Assembly (NCBI GenBank): GCA_949293255.1
Contig: CASFCL010000006.1
Span: forward strand, 1 to 64,000
Direction of reading: 5' to 3'
DNA length: 64,000 nt
DNA from: an uncultured bacterium
GTDB lineage: Bacteria > Bacillota_I > Bacilli_A > RFN20 > CAG-826
Shown: in pieces, positions 12,172 to 52,635 of the stretch
Numbering within the stretch: the stretch's first letter is position 1
Layout: every line of letters starts with the position of its first letter
The notes under the pieces: generated by a model
The model's input: the letters and a program-made list of their open reading frames with translations, nothing else
Database searches by the model: none
What the model was told of the DNA's origin: nothing
Made by a program: the position numbers and the translations under genes

Positions 12172-12248
12172 GGTCCTGTAGCTCAGTTGGATAGAGCAAC
12201 AGCCTTCTAAGCTGTGGGTCAGGCGTTCGAGTCGCCTCAGGATCACCA
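12172..12248 (+). tRNA. tRNA-Arg (anticodon TCT)
   Basis: Acceptor GGTCCTG pairs with CAGGATC, and CCA is encoded. The D arm is GCTCAGTTGGATAGAGC, the anticodon loop CTTCTAA lies between ACAGC and GCTGT, and the T arm is AGGCGTTCGAGTCGCCT. Anticodon UCU reads AGA/AGG, the main Arg codons of this AT-rich genome. Confidence 0.97.
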
Positions 12249-12309
12249 AGAAATGAATACTCGAACTGTTATATAGACTACGGAGTTTATATAGAAGTTT
12301 ATGAAAAAT

Positions 12310-12330
12310 AGACCAATAGGTCTTTTTTTT
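12310..12330 (+). terminator. Terminator of tRNA-Arg
   Basis: AGACC (12310-12314), loop AATA, GGTCT (12319-12323), then a run of T to 12330, 62 nt after the tRNA. Confidence 0.8.
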
Positions 12331-12386
12331 ATGCTTAATTTTTGTTATATTATGCACATATAAAAATACCAAGCACGAAATATTTT

Positions 12387-12428
12387 ATTTCTATAAAGAA
12401 ATATAATTAATATGCAATTCATATTAAT
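12387..12428. promoter_or_regulatory. Inverted repeats before the methyltransferase, probable operator
   Basis: ATTAATATG (12406-12414), spacer CAATT, CATATTAAT (12420-12428) is a perfect 9-bp inverted repeat ending 14 nt before the start codon and abutting the GAGGG ribosome site. A second, smaller one, ATTTCT-ATAA-AGAAAT, lies at 12387-12402. Since the downstream methyltransferase has an N-terminal HTH domain, these are natural candidates for autorepression, as known for M.SsoII and M.EcoRII. The binding is inferred. Confidence 0.6.
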
Positions 12429-12442
12429 AAAAGAGGGAATTT

Positions 12443-13882
12443 ATGAAAGTCAACTATAGCAAATTATGGAAATTATTAATTGATAAGAAAATGTCTAAAA
12501 CCGATTTGAGACAAGCTGCAGTTATTAGTACGAGCACTTTAGCAAAATTAGGAAAGGACGAGCTTGTTAGTTCGGATGTTTTATCTAAAATATGTAAAGT
12601 TTTAAATTGCGAGCCAAAGGACATTTTAAGTTTTGAAAAAGATGATAATGAAAATTTTGAAGTTAAACCCGATTCTTCAAAATATAAAGTAGTTTCTTTA
12701 TTTTCAGGTGCTGGAGGAATGGATCTAGGATTTATTCAAGCTGGGTTCCAAATTATTTGGGCAAATGACAATTTTAAAGAAGCTATCGAATCATATAAAA
12801 CAAATGTCGGGAATCATATAGTTTTTGGAGACATTACAATGATTTCTAGTGATGATATACCAAATGACGCAGATGTTATTATTGGCGGCTTTCCTTGTCA
12901 GGGATTTTCAATTGCTAATAAAAATAGAAGTATGAACGACCAACGAAATTTTTTATATAAAGAAATGTTACGCATTATAAAAGACAAAAAGCCTAAGATG
13001 TTTGTTGCGGAAAATGTTAAAGGATTACTTTCGATGGAAAAAGGGAAAGTATTTGAAATGATAAAGAATGATTTTATTTCTCTAGGTTATTATGTTGAGG
13101 CAAGAATTTTAAATGCTGCAGAATATGGAGTTCCGCAACAAAGAGAAAGATTAATTATAATAGGAAATAGAGTAAGTAATAATATAACTTTTCCTCTTAA
13201 AACTCATTATTTAGATGACCGTAATAGAGAAATCGGTTTAAAACCTGCGATAACAACGAAGGAAGCTATAGGTTGGCTTGCTGACATTAGATGTCAAGAT
13301 TCTCCAATAATAATGAACAACGGTAAAATAATATATCAACACATTGCTTTAGAGAATGTGGCAGATAAATTTTGGGCTCGAAAGTATGACGTTAATCAAC
13401 ATGAATTATGTGATTATCTAGTTGAATGGAGAAAAAAAGCGAAGTTAAGTACTAAAAAAATAGATGAATATTTCGGTTATAGATATACCGCTGGGCATTG
13501 GTTCAGAAAAGATAACAATAGCGGGAGTATACCAAAACCAGAAGATTGGCGGAATTTAAAGAAATTATTGAAATTTGATGATAAATATGATGAAGCAGTA
13601 ACGACTTTAGTAGAAAAAAATGTTAGTTTTGAACAATCTCTAAGAATTACTAATTGGGACAGGCCTAGCGACACTATTACTGCAACAAGTCCAGAAATTC
13701 ATGTTAACAAAAAAAGAAGATTAAGCGTAAGAGAGTGTGCAATTTTACAATGCTTTCCAGAGAACTATATTTTTTCAGGTTCGACAATCGGCGTTATGTA
13801 TAAACAAATAGGAAACGCTGTTCCGGTAAAATTGGCATATGAAGTAGCTAAATGTGTGAAAAGTGAATTGGATAAAATGTGA
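12443..13882 (+). CDS. DNA (cytosine-5-)-methyltransferase with N-terminal HTH regulatory domain
   Basis: A 479-residue type II modification enzyme. Residues 1-65 form an Xre-like HTH (LRQAAVISTSTLAKL). The C5 methyltransferase core begins with motif I SLFSGAGGMDLGF (SAM binding), has motif IV GGFPCQGFS with catalytic Cys152, motif VI AENVKG, motif VIII YGVPQQRERLIIIG, and motif X QIGNAVPV at the C-terminus. The target-recognition region (about 300-420) includes YRYTAGHWFRKDNNSGSIP, a segment that also occurs in phage-type methylases. It stops at TGA, 2 nt from the end of a convergent nuclease gene, its presumed restriction partner. The ATG follows AGAGGG. Target sequence cannot be read. Confidence 0.93.
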   Translation: MKVNYSKLWKLLIDKKMSKTDLRQAAVISTSTLAKLGKDELVSSDVLSKICKVLNCEPKDILSFEKDDNENFEVKPDSSKYKVVSLFSGAGGMDLGFIQAGFQIIWANDNFKEAIESYKTNVGNHIVFGDITMISSDDIPNDADVIIGGFPCQGFSIANKNRSMNDQRNFLYKEMLRIIKDKKPKMFVAENVKGLLSMEKGKVFEMIKNDFISLGYYVEARILNAAEYGVPQQRERLIIIGNRVSNNITFPLKTHYLDDRNREIGLKPAITTKEAIGWLADIRCQDSPIIMNNGKIIYQHIALENVADKFWARKYDVNQHELCDYLVEWRKKAKLSTKKIDEYFGYRYTAGHWFRKDNNSGSIPKPEDWRNLKKLLKFDDKYDEAVTTLVEKNVSFEQSLRITNWDRPSDTITATSPEIHVNKKRRLSVRECAILQCFPENYIFSGSTIGVMYKQIGNAVPVKLAYEVAKCVKSELDKM

Positions 13883-13884
13883 AA

Positions 13885-14922
13885 TTATTTTATTTTGAAA
13901 CTTTTAATACCCAACCGCATTTTATCTTCGGAATCAAAGCGATTCATTAATCTTAAGTTTGACACTCTGTTTGTGTTACCTTTTTTTACTGCTTCTAAAT
14001 AAAATTTTGTTTCTGATCCGCCTTTTTTAGCTTTGCGCTCAACAGGAAACCAAGATACACCTTTAATTCTATTATCCGGATGTACTTGGTATTTATTAAA
14101 AGCACCAACTTTGCTTCTGCCATTAATAAGCTGAAAATCAGGAAAATCTTTAACATATTTTTTTACTGAATCAATAACTTTATTGGAATCATCGGTTAAA
14201 TAAACTCGTTCAAACCCTTTTTGAATATCGTAATACGAATAAGTTTTAAAATTTGTTACTATATCATAATTAAAAAGAGGGCTTAACAAACCATTTGGTA
14301 AGCATTTTAAATATATTGTATCAAATGCATCTTCTCTATATAGTCGAAAAGAATGGTTATCATCGTAATAAACTATAACTAAAAAATATGTTAATACAGG
14401 TTTTTCAGGTTCAAAATTAAAAGAATATTCATCAGGTAACAAGCATTCTACTTTAACTCCAGAATTAGGAATATTTGGATCTGAATCTAAATATTTATTG
14501 TGAAAAGATGATTGATTATTTTCAAATTGCAAATTATGAATATCACCTTTATTTCCTTTATAATCTAAAGTTTTAACGTCGATATTTATTACAGCATCAT
14601 TTGTAATGAAAGCTATATCTGAAGAAACCGGGGAAGGATATATGCTCGTTATCAAATTTGATAAATTCTTATAGATATATTGTCTTGCTAGTCGTTCAGC
14701 AGGAATCTTAATTTTATTTTTTTCACCCCACACATTAGATAAGAATTGGTAGTTCTTTTGTATTTCTAATTCAATTATTTTTAAATCATTAATAAAGTTA
14801 AAAGATGTAAAAAGATTAAATAATAAGTTAAAATATTTCTTCTCTAAATCAAGAACTTTTTTAATTTTAGTAATGTCAAATTTGGATGAATCTAATTCAG
14901 AGACTTTAATTTGAGAACTCAT
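13885..14922 (-). CDS. Putative type II restriction endonuclease, PD-(D/E)XK-like
   Basis: I do not recognise the subfamily. The context is strong: it is convergent with a C5 methyltransferase, with 2 nt between the stops. A nuclease core can be proposed at SDIAFITNDAVINIDVKTLD (about residues 110-130), where Asp-x(n)-Asp-Val-Lys fits a PD-(D/E)XK active site after a beta hairpin. The C-terminus (KGVSWFPVERKAKKGGSETK) is basic and could contact DNA. I start at ATG 14922 (345 aa) rather than the TTG at 14943. Neither has a clear ribosome site, and a TATCAT box lies just upstream of the ATG, so the mRNA may be nearly leaderless. Alternative: a non-restriction nuclease or accessory protein. Confidence 0.68.
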   Translation of the reverse strand: MSSQIKVSELDSSKFDITKIKKVLDLEKKYFNLLFNLFTSFNFINDLKIIELEIQKNYQFLSNVWGEKNKIKIPAERLARQYIYKNLSNLITSIYPSPVSSDIAFITNDAVINIDVKTLDYKGNKGDIHNLQFENNQSSFHNKYLDSDPNIPNSGVKVECLLPDEYSFNFEPEKPVLTYFLVIVYYDDNHSFRLYREDAFDTIYLKCLPNGLLSPLFNYDIVTNFKTYSYYDIQKGFERVYLTDDSNKVIDSVKKYVKDFPDFQLINGRSKVGAFNKYQVHPDNRIKGVSWFPVERKAKKGGSETKFYLEAVKKGNTNRVSNLRLMNRFDSEDKMRLGIKSFKIK

Positions 14923-14975
14923 AATGAAATTATGATAACACAAAATAATTAATAAAAATACTAAGTATGAGCTAG

Positions 14976-15000
14976 GAGGGGTGTTACTAAACCCCTCTTT
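14976..15000 (+). terminator. Terminator-like GC-rich hairpin
   Basis: GAGGGGT (14976-14982), 8-nt loop, ACCCCTC (14991-14997), TTTT. No plus-strand gene ends here, so it may insulate the nuclease promoter from the downstream region or be left from an earlier arrangement. Confidence 0.5.
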
Positions 15001-15015
15001 TAAAATAATTTTTAG

Positions 15016-15076
15016 TTTTTGAAATAGAAACTGTTCATGTGCCTAGCACATCTGGAGCAGTTTCTATTTTCAAAAA
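15016..15076. repeat. Large nested inverted repeat (cruciform) upstream of the Xre-recombinase pair
   Basis: TTTTTGAAATAGAAACTG (15016-15033) pairs with the segment 15058-15076 over 18 bp with one bulged base. The 24-nt centre holds a second perfect stem, ATGTGC/GCACAT around CTA. No protein is encoded. It could be a recombinase-related site, a small structured RNA or a transposon end. Location between the R-M genes and the recombinase favours a mobile-element role, which is inference. Confidence 0.6.
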
Positions 15077-15092
15077 CACTAAATAACTATAA

Positions 15093-15120
15093 ACACTATT
15101 ATTCTATAATAAAATAGTGT
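15093..15120. promoter_or_regulatory. Xre operator overlapping the promoter of the Xre-recombinase operon
   Basis: ACACTATT (15093-15100) and AATAGTGT (15113-15120) are perfect inverted arms around a consensus TATAAT (15105-15110). A further ACACTA half-site sits at 15077. A repressor bound here would cover the -10 box, so autorepression by the adjacent Xre protein is likely. A -35 box is weak. Confidence 0.62.
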
Positions 15121-15145
15121 ATTATCTATTCACGGAGGTCAATAA

Positions 15146-15499
15146 ATGAAAATAAACAATATCGTAGGTAACCGCTTAAAAACGCTTAGAAAAAGAAACA
15201 AACTTACTCAAAGTGATATTGCAAAACTTTTAAATTGTAGCCAAAATGCTATTTTTTCTTATGAGAGCGGGATTAATGAGCCACCATTAAAAGTATTAAA
15301 GTTTTATTCAGATTATTTTAATGTTTCTTATGATTATTTATTTGGAAAAGCAAATAAAAAAGTTTTTCCAAATGTTGATGCTCAAGAAGACATTAAAAGC
15401 TTTATTGAATATTGCTTTACGCCAGAAAGTGGCGAAATATATGAAGAGATAAAATCATATATTTATAAAATAATTGATCGAGGTATGAATATTGATTAG
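15146..15499 (+). CDS. Xre-family HTH repressor
   Basis: A 117-residue DNA-binding protein. The HTH_3 domain occupies about 6-60 (LKTLRKRNKLTQSDIAKLLN, then SQNAIFSYESGINEPP), and a short variable C-terminus presumably mediates dimerisation. The start has an excellent GGAGG ribosome site. The gene overlaps the recombinase gene by 8 nt, so it probably controls its own expression and that of the recombinase from the upstream operator. This is the usual regulator-integrase pairing of mobile elements. Confidence 0.88.
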   Translation: MKINNIVGNRLKTLRKRNKLTQSDIAKLLNCSQNAIFSYESGINEPPLKVLKFYSDYFNVSYDYLFGKANKKVFPNVDAQEDIKSFIEYCFTPESGEIYEEIKSYIYKIIDRGMNID

Positions 15500-16967
15500 T
15501 GTCGTAATATATGCAAGATATTCTTGCGATAATCAAAGAGAAGAATCGATTGAAGGCCAATTAAGGGAATGCAGAGATTTTTGTAAAAAACACAATTTTT
15601 GCGTGGTTAATGAATATATTGATAGAGCTTTATCAGCAAGAACAGACAATCGACCACAATTTAAAAAGATGATAAACGACTCGCAAAATAAAACTTTTGA
15701 AAAAGTAATTGTATGGAAATTAGATAGATTTGCAAGAAACAGAAATGACTCGATAATTTATAAAATGAAGTTACTAAAAAATGGAGTTAAAGTTGTTTCA
15801 GCTACTGAGCATATTTCAGATTCGCCAGAAGGTGTTATTTTAGAATCCGTATTAGAAGGATTTGCTGAATATTATTCTAAAGATTTATCACAAAAAGTTA
15901 CTCGTGGAATGAAAGAAAACTTTCTTAAGGGCAAATTTAATGGGGGAATTCCAGCCTATGGATTTAAAGTTGTAAATAATAAATTAGTCATCGATGAAAA
16001 TGAACAAAAAATTGTAAAAAGACTTTTTGAAATTTATACAACTACAAGTTTATCATTAAATAAAATTGCGATGATGTTTAATGAAGAGGGTTTAAGAAAT
16101 AGACAAGGCAAAAAATTTACACAACATCAAATGAATTCTCTTATTAGTAACAGAAAATTCATAGGCGAACTATCATTTAATGGAGAAACAATCTCAAACG
16201 CACTACCAATCAGTATTGATTTAAAAACTTTTGAACTTGCTCAACAAAAAAAGCAGGCTAACAAAATTAATTCTTCACATTTTAGAAACGAAGATAAATA
16301 TATATTGAGTGGTAAATTATATTGTGGCGAATGTAATCATAAAATGATTGGAGAAAGTGTTAATAAAAGTAACGGCAAAACTTATCGTTATTATAAATGC
16401 CAAGTAATTAAGAACAGATTAAAAGATTTTAAATGCGATAATAGACCTATTAAAAAAGATTTTATAGAACATCTAGTTTTTGATAAAGTTTGGGATTTGA
16501 TTACTGATTCGTCTTATTTAGAAAAACTAGCAAATAAAATTTTAGAATATTTAAGTAACCAAAATCCTTTAATACCTCAATTAATAGCCACTTTAACTGA
16601 TATTAATAAGAAAATAAACAATCTTTTAAAAGCCATTGAGGACGGTGCACCATATAAAATTGTAAAAGAAAAATTAGATAAATTAGCTACTGAAAAAGAT
16701 GAAATATCTAATAGACTAGAAATTGAAAAAACAACAATTAAAACCTTAACTTATGAGCAAATAATTTATGCCTTAAGTAAAAAGCCGCCTTTTAAAGATG
16801 GAGAAAAAGATTTATCTTTTAAGGAACAATGTATTAATCAAATTGTAAATAAAGTTATCATTTATAAAGATGGAAGAATAGGTATCATTTTTAACTATAA
16901 AAACGGAAATGAACCTTATTCTTTTGATTTGAATAGTTCGAGTTTAAAAAGTCTAGGCTCACTATAA
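15492..16967 (+). CDS. Large serine recombinase (site-specific integrase/resolvase)
   Basis: A 491-residue large serine recombinase. The resolvase domain (1-150) holds the nucleophile Ser11 in YARYSCDNQ, and further active-site arginines are visible in KLDRFARNR. A Recombinase domain (about 160-260, IPAYGFKVV onward) and a zinc ribbon (CGECNHKM with later Cys residues, about 277-320) follow, then a coiled-coil tail. It appears complete. Start is the TTG at 15492, preceded by GAGG 8 nt away and overlapping the xre gene. It most likely integrates or excises the surrounding R-M segment; no attachment-site repeats are visible. Confidence 0.94.
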   Translation: MISVVIYARYSCDNQREESIEGQLRECRDFCKKHNFCVVNEYIDRALSARTDNRPQFKKMINDSQNKTFEKVIVWKLDRFARNRNDSIIYKMKLLKNGVKVVSATEHISDSPEGVILESVLEGFAEYYSKDLSQKVTRGMKENFLKGKFNGGIPAYGFKVVNNKLVIDENEQKIVKRLFEIYTTTSLSLNKIAMMFNEEGLRNRQGKKFTQHQMNSLISNRKFIGELSFNGETISNALPISIDLKTFELAQQKKQANKINSSHFRNEDKYILSGKLYCGECNHKMIGESVNKSNGKTYRYYKCQVIKNRLKDFKCDNRPIKKDFIEHLVFDKVWDLITDSSYLEKLANKILEYLSNQNPLIPQLIATLTDINKKINNLLKAIEDGAPYKIVKEKLDKLATEKDEISNRLEIEKTTIKTLTYEQIIYALSKKPPFKDGEKDLSFKEQCINQIVNKVIIYKDGRIGIIFNYKNGNEPYSFDLNSSSLKSLGSL

Positions 16968-37462: not shown

Positions 37463-38323
37463 TTATTTTATATAATTTATCTTTAATTTAGGTTTAATTT
37501 TACTATCTTTAGTATAGATTAATTCTTTAACACCGACACAACTAATTGCTCCTCCTTTAGGATTTTTAATTGAGTCAATAACTGAATGAATATCACCTTT
37601 GACAGTTGAATATTCAAAGGCTAAATCACAATCTTCCATAGTGCAATTTATTAACTTTAAATTTTTGGTATAACAAAATGGTTGTGTACCAATAATTCTA
37701 CAATCAATAAAAGTAAGATTTTTAGAATACCAAGCAAGATATTCACCCTTAACAGTTGAGTTTCTAATTACCACATTTTCAGTATGCCAAAAGCAATCTT
37801 TTGTATCTAAATATGAGTCTTCAATTTCAACATTTTTACAATATTGAAATGAATATTTTCCACTAAATTTTAAATTTCTAATTTTAATATTTTTAGAAAG
37901 CAAAAATGCATACTCACTTGTAATAGAACTATCGACCAATTCGATATTTTTACATTTCCATAAGATTTCTGGAGAAGTTGCTTCAATTCTTTTTAAATTG
38001 ATATTTTTACATTCTCTTAAAGCTTTAATTCCATCTAAAAAAGAATCCTCGATCAAAATGTTATTTGTATACCAAAGTGCTGCTCTACTTAATTCAGTAA
38101 ATTTAGAATTTTTAACTTCTAAATTGTCTACATGCCACAATGGATAACGTAAATTGAAAAAGGTATCTTCAATTTTAATATTTGATGATTCTTTTAATGC
38201 ACTTTCACCATCTTCTACACCATCAAATCTTAAGTTTTTTAAATGTAAGTGATGCGTGTTATACAAATCCCTTTCGTGAGGAAAACTTTTATCTTCAATC
38301 AATTTATATTCTATCTTCTTCAT
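37463..38323 (-). CDS. DUF3737-family beta-helix protein
   Basis: A 286-residue protein made of short repeating strands (ALKESSNIKIEDTFF, LWYTNNILIEDSFLDG, FWHTENVVIRNSTVKG), typical of a right-handed parallel beta-helix of the DUF3737 family. Function unknown. No signal peptide, so cytoplasmic. ATG at 38323 (MKKIEYKLIEDKSF) is preferred over an in-frame TTG 21 nt upstream; neither has a strong ribosome site. Confidence 0.75.
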   Translation of the reverse strand: MKKIEYKLIEDKSFPHERDLYNTHHLHLKNLRFDGVEDGESALKESSNIKIEDTFFNLRYPLWHVDNLEVKNSKFTELSRAALWYTNNILIEDSFLDGIKALRECKNINLKRIEATSPEILWKCKNIELVDSSITSEYAFLLSKNIKIRNLKFSGKYSFQYCKNVEIEDSYLDTKDCFWHTENVVIRNSTVKGEYLAWYSKNLTFIDCRIIGTQPFCYTKNLKLINCTMEDCDLAFEYSTVKGDIHSVIDSIKNPKGGAISCVGVKELIYTKDSKIKPKLKINYIK

Positions 38324-38432
38324 ACGCAAATATTTTATTATCAAGTACTCATTATTTCAAATAACATGCTCATATTATTATCTATAATTAAAAATTATAG
38401 ATATACAATTTATAATCTTTTAGAATATTTTT

Positions 38433-40159: not shown

Positions 40160-40525
40160 TGGTGGAGATGCGGGGAGTTGAACCCCGGTCCATAAATAGA
40201 TCCACAAAGACTACTACAGTTTAGTAGAATTTAGAATTTAATGACTTTATTAATATCTACTAATTTCAAGTCACTAGATTATAAGTTTTCGTCTCCTATA
40301 CATAATCATCTATAAGAGCTTATCTTCTTTAAATAACAGAGAAATAAATACCAGAAGATGAATATCTAATCTCCGCTTGCACTAAGATAAATTTATCTTA
40401 TTAAGAGACTAAGCAGCAAATGCAAGATTGTTAACTCTGTTGCCAGATAATTTTTTGTGGTCTTTAACGCAACCATACGACTGCAATCTAAGCCAAACTA
40501 CCAATGTCGAAACCTAGACATCCCC
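40160..40525 (-). ncRNA. ssrA: Transfer-messenger RNA (tmRNA)
   Basis: Rescues stalled ribosomes. The 5' end GGGGATGTCTAGGTTTCGAC and 3' end GGTTCAACTCCCCGCATC followed by TCCACCA are diagnostic and pair as the tRNA-like acceptor (GGGGATG with CATCTCC). The tag reading frame ends at TAG (40411-40409) and encodes ...DHKKLSGNRVNNLAFAA, close to the usual ALAA-type degron. The exact resume codon is uncertain. CCA is encoded. Confidence 0.97.
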
Positions 40526-40565: not shown

Positions 40566-40768
40566 GACCTTATTTATAATGCCAAAAAAAGTGGATAAAT
40601 CTTATTTTATTTCAAGATTTACTACATTTTCTTAACTAATTTAAACTTTAAAACTAATTATACTATCTAAAATTTAATATACTTTTATTAATCTAGATAA
40701 TTTGAGTGAGGTTTTTTGCTGCTCTTATAAATAAATATGTTACTATATGAAGAAAGGAGCTGATAGTT

Positions 40769-42604
40769 ATGAACAATATTAACAAAGATGTAGCTGACTA
40801 CTGTAAAGATTTAAACGGAGTTAATTTTATTAAATTAATTAATGATAAAGATTATGATAACGGTAGTTTACAAAAGAGAATATCTTTCGTTATAGAATAT
40901 AAAGAACCTGCTTTTATTAATTTTAATAACTCTAATAAATTAAAATATTACTACGGTTTATCACCTGAATTAAAAACAAATGATATTAAGAATATTATAA
41001 CTACTGATATATTGATTAATAATGATAAGCTTAAAACATATCTAAAAGATCATGGTCAATACTTTAATCTAGATAAAAAAGATTTAATGAATAAATATGG
41101 AGAAGCTTTATTTGCTAGATGTATCTTAGGTATATCACTCCATTATGGGTTTATATTTAAATATAAAGAAGAAGATTTATCTATATTAGAAGAATTTATA
41201 GATTTAAAAAATAACAAATTACATTTAAAAATGGATAAAGAAAAACATTTTATTGCTATTAAAGGTAGACCAACAAAAGAATTTATTGAAGATTTCCCTT
41301 TTAATATAAAAATAGAAGAACTATCTAATGAATCATATAAAGCTAGTTTAATTAAAAAAGACAAAAGTGAATCTAGTAATATAGTTACTCTTTTAGATAT
41401 ATATGAAGGTAAATCAAAACTAACAATATCTTTACTTGATGAAATTTACTATTCTGGTGTATTACCAAAATTAAAGAAAATAGTCGAATTAGAAAAGGAA
41501 AAAAAGGAAAAAAATCCTAATAATATAACTTATAAATTAATAGTTGAAAGAACTACTTTTGCTTTTTTAGAATCATTTGATAAAACTGAATTATTAAAAT
41601 ATGAAATTATGGCTAAATATAAAGATATTTTAATTGAATTTAATGAGAATGAATATAAATTAGAAAATGAATATATACATCAAAATAAAATAGATATTGA
41701 TTTGATTAATAAATATTTAAATGAAACCTCAAACATTAATAATATAGCTGTATCAGCCAATATTATAACTAAAGATAATTATGTTATTTATGGTTATAGA
41801 AATGGCACTTCTATCGATGCTAATAGTATCTATTGTTCATTCAATGGTCAATCTGAAATATTAGATAAGAATGTTGATTATTATAATGATTCAGCCTATG
41901 AAGATTATCCAACTATTGATCTTAATTCAGATATGAGAAAAGACTTTAAAAATGAATTTGCTAGAGAAATGATGGCTGAATTATCTTTAACAGGGTTTGA
42001 AAAAGATTATAGATATTTAGGTATATCTATATTAGGTATTCATAATGAAAAATTTGATCCTGCGTCTCCAAGAAGACTTCATTTTAATATCTTAGCTGAG
42101 CATAAAACAGATTATACATTTAAAGATGTCTTAGGTGTTTGGGATAAATCATTAGAAGCATTTGAAAATAAATTGATATTAGGTATAAAACATAAACAAT
42201 ATAAATCTAAATGGGAAATGTTTTATAAAAGCGCTATTTCATTTCTAAAATATATTTCATCTTCAAAAGAAATAATCCTTTTATTAATAGCTCTTATTAC
42301 AGGAACATTAACTTTTGGTAAGTTAAACTTAAGTTCAACTATGAGTAATATATTTACAGGAATCTCTATTTCTTTATCTATTATTTCAATTGGATTTTTT
42401 ATATATAATTTAATAAAAATAAAGAAAAAGACTAGAGCAAAAATATATACAAATACAATAGATGAAATGAAATTTTTAACTAGTATTGATAAGAAATTAT
42501 CTAAATTAGTTAATAATAAGGCAAAAAATAATAAAGTTTTATCACCTATTGGTGTGTTAATGACATATCTAGATATTTATAATAGAAAAGGCAGTAAATT
42601 CTAA
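40769..42604 (+). CDS. Unknown membrane protein with a Nudix-like segment and two C-terminal TM helices
   Basis: A 611-residue protein I cannot assign. Residues 1-310 are charged and helical with no recognised motif. Residues about 325-445 resemble a Nudix fold: strands NIAVSANIITKDNYVIYGYR, then EFAREMMAELSL, which matches the RE-U-x-E-E-x-G-U half of a Nudix box imperfectly, then YRYLGISILG and RRLHFNILAEH. Two TM helices (about 501-519 and 529-549) lie between soluble parts, with no signal peptide, so the large domain is cytoplasmic. The gene is very AT-rich and sits beside tmRNA, a common integration site. AAAGGAG lies 9 nt before the ATG. The Nudix relation is tentative. Confidence 0.65.
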   Translation: MNNINKDVADYCKDLNGVNFIKLINDKDYDNGSLQKRISFVIEYKEPAFINFNNSNKLKYYYGLSPELKTNDIKNIITTDILINNDKLKTYLKDHGQYFNLDKKDLMNKYGEALFARCILGISLHYGFIFKYKEEDLSILEEFIDLKNNKLHLKMDKEKHFIAIKGRPTKEFIEDFPFNIKIEELSNESYKASLIKKDKSESSNIVTLLDIYEGKSKLTISLLDEIYYSGVLPKLKKIVELEKEKKEKNPNNITYKLIVERTTFAFLESFDKTELLKYEIMAKYKDILIEFNENEYKLENEYIHQNKIDIDLINKYLNETSNINNIAVSANIITKDNYVIYGYRNGTSIDANSIYCSFNGQSEILDKNVDYYNDSAYEDYPTIDLNSDMRKDFKNEFAREMMAELSLTGFEKDYRYLGISILGIHNEKFDPASPRRLHFNILAEHKTDYTFKDVLGVWDKSLEAFENKLILGIKHKQYKSKWEMFYKSAISFLKYISSSKEIILLLIALITGTLTFGKLNLSSTMSNIFTGISISLSIISIGFFIYNLIKIKKKTRAKIYTNTIDEMKFLTSIDKKLSKLVNNKAKNNKVLSPIGVLMTYLDIYNRKGSKF

Positions 42605-43711: not shown

Positions 43712-43741
43712 AAAATCAGAGGACCGAAGTCCTCTGATTTT
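43712..43741. terminator. Bidirectional terminator
   Basis: AAAATCAGAGGAC (43712-43724), CGAA tetraloop, GTCCTCTGATTTT (43729-43741); T-rich on both sides. Serves the esterase (plus) and the ABC operon end (minus). Confidence 0.9.
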
Positions 43742-49490: not shown

Positions 49491-50996
49491 TTACTTATCA
49501 TTTAAAGCTCCTGGACCATTATAATTTTTATCATAAATCATCTCGATAAATTCTGGATGATCGATAAATGGATTGCGGTTATGTTGATATTCTTGATCGA
49601 TAATATTGTTTCTATTAACTTCAAAATCACTGACTGGATCGATAGTACTGGTTGCCCAATCATATAAATCTACAAAATTTCCATGACGTCCATCGGCTGA
49701 ACCATAATTAAATGTATTGTATCTAGAAGTATCTCTATTTCCGCTAACTTCTAAATTAAGTTCACCATTACTTCCATCATATCTAACCGCCATATAGAAA
49801 ATCATTCTTGCAACATCGCCTTTAAATTCATCTTTTGGTTCAAAAACAGTTGCAGTTGTGTTTAATCCTGTCCCTACATAGTTTCCATCCATTGCATCGG
49901 TCCACCAACTTTTAGATTGTTGAGTATTAGAAGATGAATGACTTGCAACTACACCAAAATCATAGTTTCCTCTCCATCTATTTAAATCATAATCAGCTGG
50001 TCTAAGATGGTGCATGTCAGTTCCACAAGGTGCACTTTCTCCAAAACCACCATGAGATTTTGCCCAAGTATGCTCTCTATTAAAGGTAGAAGATCCATTC
50101 TCATTGACACTTCCTTCGTAAGTTCTAATTATTTTACTTGGATTATCTATATCGACATCTGTCTTTGGCATTGACTGCCAAAGAGCAGAATAGCTATATT
50201 CAGTGTGTTCATGAATTATTTGATGAAGACCATTTTTTAAAGCTTCTCCACTTAATCCTCTAATAGGTTCATAATATTCGTCAATATCAACGCTTTGAGA
50301 ACCTCTTGAAGGAGAAATTCTTGTATTTGCATAAAGGTAATCGTAGTTAGCTTCACCATCATAACTACTAGCAAAAGTAGCACTTACTGTATATGTAATT
50401 GCCTCGCTAGCGACAAAATATTTTGATGATAAAATATTGCTTCCATTAACAGTTAAACTTGATAAATAATATCCCTTATTTGGTGTATAAACTATATAAA
50501 TTGTTGAATTTAATTCCACTTCTGCAGGGTTATTAAAATTTCTAAAGGAAATTTGTCCATTTTGAATATCCTCAGAAATCTGAATTGTTGCTTTCTTTTC
50601 TTCCTCATTATTTCCGTTTTCTTCTTCAATCAAAGCAAAAGTAACTTCAACTTGATAGGTTGTTGCAAGAGAAAATGTGAACTCTAATGAATCAGAAATA
50701 TCAACGCCATTAATAGTCAATGAAAAAAGTTTATAACCCTCATTTGGAGTTACTACAAAGGTTGCAGTTTTGTTTAAATCAATTTGATAAGTACCCTCTG
50801 AAGTAGGTAAAATATTTGCACCGTCAACTAATAAATTAACTGTTCCGTTTGAAAATTCATTTATGGAAACTACTGCTTTTTGATGAATTTCAGTAACATC
50901 ATTAGAAATATTACGTGTACAAGAAACTAAAGAAATAGTACCAATAGAGGCTACTAAAAATCCTGTTAATATTTTCTTTTTAAATATCTTTTTCAT
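49491..50996 (-). CDS. Extracellular endonuclease I family lipoprotein
   Basis: A 501-residue surface nuclease. The signal ends at Cys26 (lipobox LVSC). Residues about 40-210 contain two similar repeats of the bacterial-repeat type (VNLLVDGANILPTSEGTYQI then YKLFSLTINGVDISDSLEFT, with a second set downstream). The endonuclease I domain (about 240-500) has NREHTWAKSHGGFG, DMHHLRPADYDLNRWRGNYD and EFKGDVARMIFYMAVRY, with likely catalytic His residues in EHTWAKSH and DMHHLRP. Likely role: degrading environmental DNA or RNA for nutrients. A frameshifted paralogue follows. Confidence 0.92.
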   Translation of the reverse strand: MKKIFKKKILTGFLVASIGTISLVSCTRNISNDVTEIHQKAVVSINEFSNGTVNLLVDGANILPTSEGTYQIDLNKTATFVVTPNEGYKLFSLTINGVDISDSLEFTFSLATTYQVEVTFALIEEENGNNEEEKKATIQISEDIQNGQISFRNFNNPAEVELNSTIYIVYTPNKGYYLSSLTVNGSNILSSKYFVASEAITYTVSATFASSYDGEANYDYLYANTRISPSRGSQSVDIDEYYEPIRGLSGEALKNGLHQIIHEHTEYSYSALWQSMPKTDVDIDNPSKIIRTYEGSVNENGSSTFNREHTWAKSHGGFGESAPCGTDMHHLRPADYDLNRWRGNYDFGVVASHSSSNTQQSKSWWTDAMDGNYVGTGLNTTATVFEPKDEFKGDVARMIFYMAVRYDGSNGELNLEVSGNRDTSRYNTFNYGSADGRHGNFVDLYDWATSTIDPVSDFEVNRNNIIDQEYQHNRNPFIDHPEFIEMIYDKNYNGPGALNDK

Positions 50997-51043: not shown

Positions 51044-52635
51044 TTATAAATCGTTTAAAGCACCTGGGCCACTATATGTTTTATCATAAATCATCTCAAT
51101 AAATTCAGGATGATCAATAAAAGGATTTCTATTATGCTGATATTCTTCATCAATAATATTGTTTCTATTAACCTCAAAATCACTGACTGGATCGATAGAA
51201 CTTGTTGCCCATTCATATAAATCTACAAAATTTCCGTGTTGACCGGTTGCTGAAGAATAGTTATATGTATAAAACCTTGAAGTATCTCTACTTCCACCAA
51301 CTTCAAGATTTTTCTCGCCACTACTTCCATCATATCTAACAGCCATATAGAAAACCATTCTAGCTACATCGCCTTTAAATTCATCTTTTGGTTCGAAAAC
51401 TCTTGCAGATGTATTTAAACCTGTTCCACAATAATTTCCATCCATTTCATCAGTCCACCAACTCTTGTCAGACCAATCATTACTACTTGAATGAGTAGCT
51501 ACAGTTCCAAAATCATAATTACTTCTACAAGAATTTAAATTTGAAAAACATGGTCTAAGATGATGCATATCGCTTCCTGCTGGTCTACTTGTTCCAAAGT
51601 TACCATGTGATTTTGCCCATGTGTGCTCTTTATTAAAACTTGAACCTTTACTTACTGAACCTTCATAAGTTCTAATATATCTTCCTGAATTATTAGGATC
51701 GACATCAGTTACCATCATTGAACTATTTAATGAGTTATAACTATAAGCAGTGTGATCATCAATAATTTCATGAAGAGCATCTTTAAGTTCTTCACCATAT
51801 AAACCTCTAACTGGTTCATAATATTCATCAATATCTACACTTTGAGAACCTCTTGATGGTTTTATTGTTTCATTTCCATATAAATAACCATATTTTCCAG
51901 TTGCCGTTGATTCTTTAAATTCAGCACTTACAACATATGTTTTTTCTTCAGAAACAATAAAACTTTTTGATGTTTTAATGCTAATTCCGTTAACTGTTAG
52001 TTTATCAAGATAATATCCACTATTTGCTTTAGCATTAACTTTAACTGTTGTACTAAGTTGAACTTGTGAGTTATTTGAATAATTTGCAAAAGAAACAGTT
52101 CCATTAGTTATCGAACTATCAATTTGAATAGTTCCATACTTAATAACAGGGGTTTCATCTTCTTTGTTATCTTCTTCAGTTGAAGAACCACTATTATTTC
52201 CGGAATTATTATCACCATCTAAATCATTATCACTACTATTATTTTGACTATCATCTTCTTGAATTAAACTAAAAGTAGCATCTAAATAATATAAAGTAGA
52301 TAAATTAAAGGTATATATGCTTTACTTTCAAGAATATCAACTTCATTTAAAGTTAAACTTGAAAGAGTATAATTCTCGCTACAAACAGGAACAAAATCGA
52401 CAGTTTTGCCTAAATTTACTTCGTAATAGTTTTCTTGAACAGGTAAAAGATTAGCTCCTTCACTCATTAAAACTATACTTCCGTTTTCAATATTATTAAT
52501 TCTTATAAAGGCTTTTTGAACTTTTTGAATTACATCATCGATTCGAAAATTTAAATCACAAGATGCTAAAGTAATTACACTAGCACTTGCTAATCCGATA
52601 ATAGAAAATAGTTTAAATTTTCTTCCCTTTTTCAT
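51044..52635 (-). pseudogene. Second endonuclease I lipoprotein, disrupted by a frameshift
   Basis: This is a paralogue of the gene at 49491. The first part (52635 to about 52318) encodes a lipoprotein signal (Cys26 from this start) and a bacterial-repeat domain up to LNEVDILESKAY. There the frame shifts at TATATA (52312-52317). Removing one TA restores SKAYTFNLSTLYYLDATFSL and an open frame through to the stop at 51044. It then passes a Ser/Asn/Asp-rich linker, a second repeat and a complete nuclease domain (NKEHTWAKSHGNFG, DMHHLRPCFSNLNSCRSNYD). As it stands translation ends early (stop at 52282). A real mutation, slippage polymorphism or sequencing error are all possible. The distal part alone has no signal peptide. 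Confidence 0.85.

What the first reader, a model, noticed from the sequence alone, without database searches (positions are those of the whole stretch)
40769..42604. Unknown Nudix-like two-TM protein beside tmRNA
A long AT-rich orphan gene next to ssrA, a classic integration site, combines an N-terminal unknown domain, a degenerate Nudix-like segment (EFAREMMAEL) and a two-TM hairpin. Nucleotide-acting enzyme domains tied to TM effectors recall some phage-defence designs; that comparison is speculative.
Basis: inference. Interest (0 to 1): 0.6.

Follow-up and report, generated by a model that had tools for sequence, protein, structure and literature searches.

The report
Rare Nudix-like membrane-anchored orphan protein
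This is a real but very rare bacterial gene for a large inner-cell protein held in the membrane by a two-helix hairpin; it resembles a nucleotide-sensing (Nudix) domain only faintly, one decayed relative sits among anti-virus genes, and what it does is still unproven.

Summary
The gene is real: one 611-residue ORF (40769-42604, +) with a clear ribosome-binding site, the lowest G+C of 41 window genes checked, and a C-terminal two-TM hairpin. tmRNA lies 243 bp away (40160-40525, minus strand). But the gene sits at the 5' end of ssrA. No displaced ssrA fragment and no nearby integrase were found, so 'integrated at ssrA' is not supported.

No Pfam, NCBIfam, PADLOC or PDB sequence family matches. 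Three species among roughly a thousand genomes carry the family. G008 has a decayed copy inside a phage-defence island (retron RT-Toprim, AbiL, DpdB-like gene, methyltransferase). G866 has an intact 718-residue relative with the same core plus 2TM order, inserted between two genes that are adjacent in sister species. So it is a sporadic single-gene accessory family found in three unrelated contexts.

Nudix: suggestive at best. A first beta-hairpin and an RExxxE helix occur in the right order, and weak non-significant matches point to Nudix proteins. The catalytic residues are lost in G866, so catalysis is not the family's common property.

Best reading (inferred): a cytosolic, Nudix-derived ligand-sensing module tied to a membrane hairpin, working like CBASS Cap16 or the TRPM2 NUDT9-H domain, probably a defence or conflict accessory.

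The parts
40769..42604 (+). Coding sequence, 611 aa, single-gene accessory protein
40753..40759 (+). Ribosome-binding site AAAGGAG
   Evidence: read from sequence
40674..40701 (+). Sigma-70-like promoter match (weak; such matches are no more frequent than in shuffles)
40769..41566 (+). N-terminal region, residues 1-266, no known family; residues 157-170 (KEKHFIAIKGRPTK) recognisable in the G008 relic, loose alignment with G866
41732..42106 (+). Conserved core, residues 322-446, divergent Nudix-like (ITKD hairpin, GxxEIxD, FxNEFxR, GxS, FxxL invariant in three species)
41837..41860 (+). SFNGQSEI (residues 357-364), at the place of the Nudix G...E segment
41945..41986 (+). FKNEFAREMMAELS (residues 393-406), Nudix-helix-like; RE..E not kept in G866 (RHAFLQQ)
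42263..42319 (+). TM helix 1, residues 499-517
42347..42412 (+). TM helix 2, residues 527-548
42413..42601 (+). Basic, helical cytosolic tail, residues 549-611 (topology inferred from the positive-inside rule)
40160..40525 (-). tmRNA gene (ssrA); its 5' end, not its 3' end, faces the gene; neighbour only

Best explanation
A rare, patchily distributed single-gene accessory protein of the window's bacterial class. About 490 residues lie in the cytosol and include a divergent Nudix-like domain. A C-terminal 2TM hairpin (both ends inside) holds it in the membrane, followed by a basic helical tail. Most likely the Nudix-like domain no longer needs catalysis and binds a nucleotide-type ligand; binding changes the oligomeric state of the hairpin and perturbs the membrane, as part of a conflict (phage-defence) function. 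Shown: the ORF, the hairpin, homology of core plus hairpin to an intact relative, sporadic insertion, and one relic in a defence island. Inferred: Nudix fold, ligand, membrane effect, defence role.
For: Core plus hairpin align with the G866 protein (BLASTP 2e-18, residues 267-562), so the two parts are kept together. G866's gene is absent between SpoU methyltransferase and acylphosphatase in sister species G808 and G964, where those genes are 5-20 bp apart. Found in 3 species only. The G008 relic lies beside a retron RT-Toprim, AbiLi/AbiLii, DpdB-like and methyltransferase genes. Fold hints: hhalign puts residues 326-351 in register with the first Nudix hairpin (E 0.063; 1 of 60 shuffles as good). 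The order beta-beta-alpha-beta-beta-alpha appears in two low-confidence models, and the best PDB fold matches of the core model are RppH Nudix enzymes (E 0.29, not significant). Design precedents: CBASS Cap16 (TM + NUDIX, still toxic with the NUDIX domain mutated; PMC10419184) and human TRPM2, whose NUDT9-H domain is catalytically inactive (PMC6461439).
Against: AlphaFold models are poor (pLDDT 32 and 37), so the fold searches carry little weight; the full-length model matched kinesins. No Pfam, NCBIfam, PADLOC or PDB sequence match. R399 is kept but E400 and E404 are lost in G866. Two of three copies sit beside ordinary genes. No partner synthase or toxin-type gene lies beside any copy. The defence-island copy is decayed and has lost the hairpin. 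The island contig is short (12.6 kb) and from a metagenome bin, so its host is not certain.
Confidence: 0.35

Rival explanations
1. Membrane-anchored accessory protein with a non-defence role (for example an envelope, stress or regulatory protein) whose soluble part is not Nudix at all; the island location of one decayed copy is a coincidence of where mobile genes gather.
For: No family match at all; Nudix catalytic-type residues not conserved; two copies beside ordinary genes.
Against: Patchy presence and gene-sized insertion are typical of accessory or conflict genes; weak but concordant Nudix hints.
Confidence: 0.35
2. Active membrane-tethered Nudix hydrolase: R399, E400 and E404 bind metal, with a 25-residue insertion in the box, and the enzyme cleaves a nucleoside-diphosphate ligand at the membrane.
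For: R-E...E kept in the window and G008 proteins; G360 and E363 lie where the box glycine and the PGGxxE segment would be.
Against: The first glutamate of the E-E pair is replaced (A403), the box glycine is S406, E400 and E404 are lost in G866; no Nudix HMM match.
Confidence: 0.12
3. Cargo of a mobile element integrated at ssrA.
For: 243 bp from ssrA; AT-rich; no conservation of this neighbourhood among congeners.
Against: It lies on the 5' side of ssrA; no ssrA fragment duplicated beyond the gene, no flank repeat above 10 bases; the nearest recombinase is about 24 kb away; in G866 the same family is inserted at a protein-gene junction.
Confidence: 0.06
4. A remnant or precursor of a CBASS, Thoeris or type III CRISPR system in which this is the TM effector and the signal-making gene lies elsewhere in the genome.
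For: 2TM effectors with nucleotide sensors are common in such systems (PMC12642688, PMC10419184); weak CARF_TM match of the G866 hairpin region (E 0.007).
Against: None of the neighbouring genes of the three copies that were tested or read is a cyclase-like synthase, TIR or Cas10 gene; the CARF_TM match may be hydrophobic background.
Confidence: 0.12

Closest known systems
CBASS effector Cap16 (TM helices + NUDIX domain)
   Same: Same two kinds of part in one protein; the NUDIX domain of Cap16 can be mutated without loss of toxicity (PMC10419184), which fits a sensing rather than catalytic role
   Different: No CD-NTase beside any copy; no PADLOC match; much longer soluble part; core only faintly Nudix; hairpin is C-terminal here (Cap16's domain order was not checked)
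TRPM2 channel with NUDT9-H domain
   Same: Nudix-derived domain with a broken Nudix box, cytosolic and attached to membrane helices (PMC6461439)
   Different: Eukaryotic multi-TM tetrameric channel; no detectable sequence relation; functional analogy only
SLATT 2TM effector family
   Same: 2TM hairpin, predicted pore effector in conflict systems (PMC9503650, PMC7159879)
   Different: No SLATT Pfam or PADLOC match; sensor domain differs
Nudix hydrolase superfamily (PF00293)
   Same: Possible first hairpin and RExxxE helix in the right order
   Different: No HMM match; box interrupted by about 25 residues; key acids lost in one member
The family in G008 (L009 3115-3834) and G866 (L060 6293-7651 with L063)
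   Same: True homologues: 44% identity over residues 211-447 and 26% over 267-562
   Different: G008 copy decayed and lacks the hairpin; G866 copy has a longer N-terminal part and no RE..E

Membership tests
Nudix hydrolase superfamily | Match to Pfam NUDIX PF00293 profile | tested here: not met
   No match up to E = 10; 14-sequence Nudix HMM gives at best E 0.002 for G008 and 0.06-0.08 for the others, in a 3-sequence search
Nudix hydrolase superfamily | Nudix box GX5EX7REUXEEXGU | tested here: not met
   Strict pattern absent; R399-E400-E404 only, absent in G866
Nudix hydrolase superfamily | Nudix fold | tested here: inconclusive
   Models pLDDT 32 and 37; best fold matches RppH, E 0.29; hairpin aligned at E 0.063
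CBASS / Cap16-type effector | Adjacent CD-NTase gene | tested here: not met
   No such neighbour of the window gene, the G008 relic or the G866 gene
CBASS / Cap16-type effector | TM helices in the same chain as the sensor | tested here: met
   Hairpin 499-548; homology to G866 spans it
CBASS / Cap16-type effector | Toxicity triggered by a nucleotide signal | not testable with these tools
   Needs an experiment
SLATT 2TM effectors | Match to SLATT profiles | tested here: not met
   No Pfam or PADLOC match of residues 465-611
ssrA-integrated genomic island | Displaced ssrA fragment or att repeat on the correct side | tested here: not met
   principle as in PMC4383910
Phage-defence gene by association | Repeated location in defence islands | tested here: inconclusive
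   One of three copies (G008, decayed) in such an island

The most novel reading that the evidence does not exclude
A stand-alone, single-gene anti-phage membrane effector in which a Nudix-derived domain that has lost its need for catalysis senses an infection-linked nucleotide and gates a 2TM hairpin, without a partner synthase: a bacterial one-protein analogue of Cap16 or of the TRPM2 gating idea.
Probability: 0.15. Interest if true: 0.65.

Novelty: new variant of a known kind. Interest (0 to 1): 0.3.

Why it matters
If right, it adds an undescribed protein family, missed by Pfam, NCBIfam and PADLOC, to the small set of membrane effectors with a built-in nucleotide-type sensor. It would also be a bacterial case of a Nudix domain kept for binding rather than cleavage. 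If wrong, it is one more rare orphan membrane protein.

Tried and rejected
Whole-protein searches of Pfam, NCBIfam, PADLOC, PHROGs and PDB sequences gave nothing usable. The PHROGs hits of the tail (E 0.003-0.009) and the CARF_TM hit of G866 (0.007) lie in hydrophobic segments and were not used. tblastn of phages and plasmids, five viral-contig scans and two genome-contig scans gave no relative except G008 again. Weak genome hits L003, L005-L008, L054 and G1065 (rpoB) were dismissed as chance or unrelated. First hhalign against five Nudix sequences: no signal. dN/dS between window and G008 was uninformative (0.51/0.65; one copy is a pseudogene and the divergence is high). Foldseek of the full-length model gave kinesins and was rejected as meaningless. 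An empty site for the window copy could not be shown, because the ssrA neighbourhood differs in the 15 congeners examined.

Full report
What is there. The ORF at 40769-42604 (+) codes for 611 residues, preceded by AAAGGAG. It is far longer than chance allows: the longest open stretch in 300 base-shuffles is 180 codons. It has the lowest G+C (21.6%) of 41 window genes. The product has a soluble part of about 490 residues, two hydrophobic helices (about 499-517 and 527-548) and a basic helical tail. Positive charges before TM1 (6 K/R) and after TM2 (8 K/R), against one in the loop, put both ends inside (inference by the positive-inside rule).

Neighbourhood. Rfam finds tmRNA at 40160-40525 on the minus strand; ARAGORN does not. 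The gene therefore lies 243 bp from the 5' end of ssrA and is transcribed away from it. An integrated island is marked by a displaced fragment of the target gene on the proper side (PMC4383910). None was found: no ssrA copy beyond short chance matches, and no repeat over 10 bases between the two flanks of the gene. The nearest recombinase gene is about 24 kb away. The other neighbours are ordinary genes: SDR dehydrogenase, esterase-like hydrolase, sugar ABC transporter. The ssrA surroundings differ in the 15 congeners examined, so an empty site for this copy could not be shown.

Relatives. Family libraries and PDB sequences give no match. Genome searches with the protein or its alignments (59, 279, 395, 392, 196, 216 and 160 genomes, partly overlapping, roughly a thousand distinct) found only two true relatives. 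G008 (same genus) has 44% identity over residues 211-447 with an in-frame TGA; upstream and downstream parts are recognisable only in other frames, and the hairpin is missing: a pseudogene. It lies in a 12.6-kb contig with a DNA methyltransferase, a DpdB/DGQHR-like gene, a PD-Lambda-3-like gene, a retron RT-Toprim (type I-C) and an AbiLi/AbiLii (RloB) pair: a defence island. G866 (another family of the class) has an intact gene split over two contigs with an 87-base overlap, 718 residues, BLASTP 2e-18 over window residues 267-562 including the hairpin. Its start codon overlaps the stop of a SpoU methyltransferase gene and its end abuts an acylphosphatase gene. In sister species G808 and G964 those two genes lie 5-20 bp apart with nothing between. 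So the family occurs as a single inserted gene in three unrelated places.

Is it Nudix? Against: no HMM match; the strict box is absent; A403 and S406 replace box residues; in G866 the stretch FKNEFAREMMAELS reads FQNEFSRHAFLQQD. For: residues 326-351 align in register with the first Nudix hairpin (hhalign E 0.063; 1 of 60 column shuffles reached the score). An R-E...E helix follows at the right side in two members. Two poor models give the element order beta-beta-alpha-beta-beta-alpha. The best PDB matches of the core model are RppH enzymes, but at E 0.29 and with pLDDT 37. I rate a Nudix-derived fold at about 50% and conserved family-wide catalysis as unlikely. Residues invariant in all three proteins (I333-T-K-D336, G360, E363, D366, N395-E-F397, R399, G418, S420, F439) mark the site to test.

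How it may work. Two precedents fit a Nudix-type module tied to membrane helices: CBASS Cap16, whose toxicity survives mutation of its NUDIX domain (PMC10419184), and TRPM2, whose human NUDT9-H domain is catalytically inactive through changes in its Nudix box (PMC6461439). By analogy I propose ligand sensing in the cytosol and a membrane action through the hairpin, with a defence role the most likely use because of patchy presence, gene-sized insertion and one island location. Every functional step is inferred. It is not filed as a CBASS effector, because no CD-NTase gene lies beside any copy, nor as a Nudix hydrolase, because the tested defining features were not met.

Verdict. It is a small undescribed family with an interesting but unproven design.

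Noticed in passing
window 12172-16967: tRNA-Arg followed by a C5 DNA methyltransferase with an HTH, a convergent gene of unknown family (possible restriction enzyme) and a large serine recombinase: looks like a small mobile restriction-modification element.
   Followed up: partly
window 40160-40525: Divergent tmRNA found by Rfam (112.5 bits) but missed by ARAGORN.
   Followed up: yes
L039, L040, L042, L043, L044, L045, L051 (congeners): In seven of the congeners examined a genuine MutT-type Nudix gene lies directly upstream of ssrA on the same strand; in the window a Nudix-like orphan lies upstream on the other strand. Probably coincidence.
   Followed up: partly
L009 1-12643 (G008): Compact defence island: methyltransferase, DpdB-like/DGQHR gene, PD-Lambda-3-like gene, retron RT-Toprim I-C, AbiLi/AbiLii pair.
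   Followed up: partly
window 49491-50996 and 51044-51718: Two neighbouring Endonuclease I-type (secreted nuclease) genes, apparently paralogues; only the first was tested by profile.
   Followed up: no
window 43712-43741: Strong two-way terminator hairpin between the convergent esterase-like and zinc-ribbon membrane protein genes.
   Followed up: no
window 37463-38344: DUF3737 right-handed beta-helix protein (E 5e-111).
   Followed up: no
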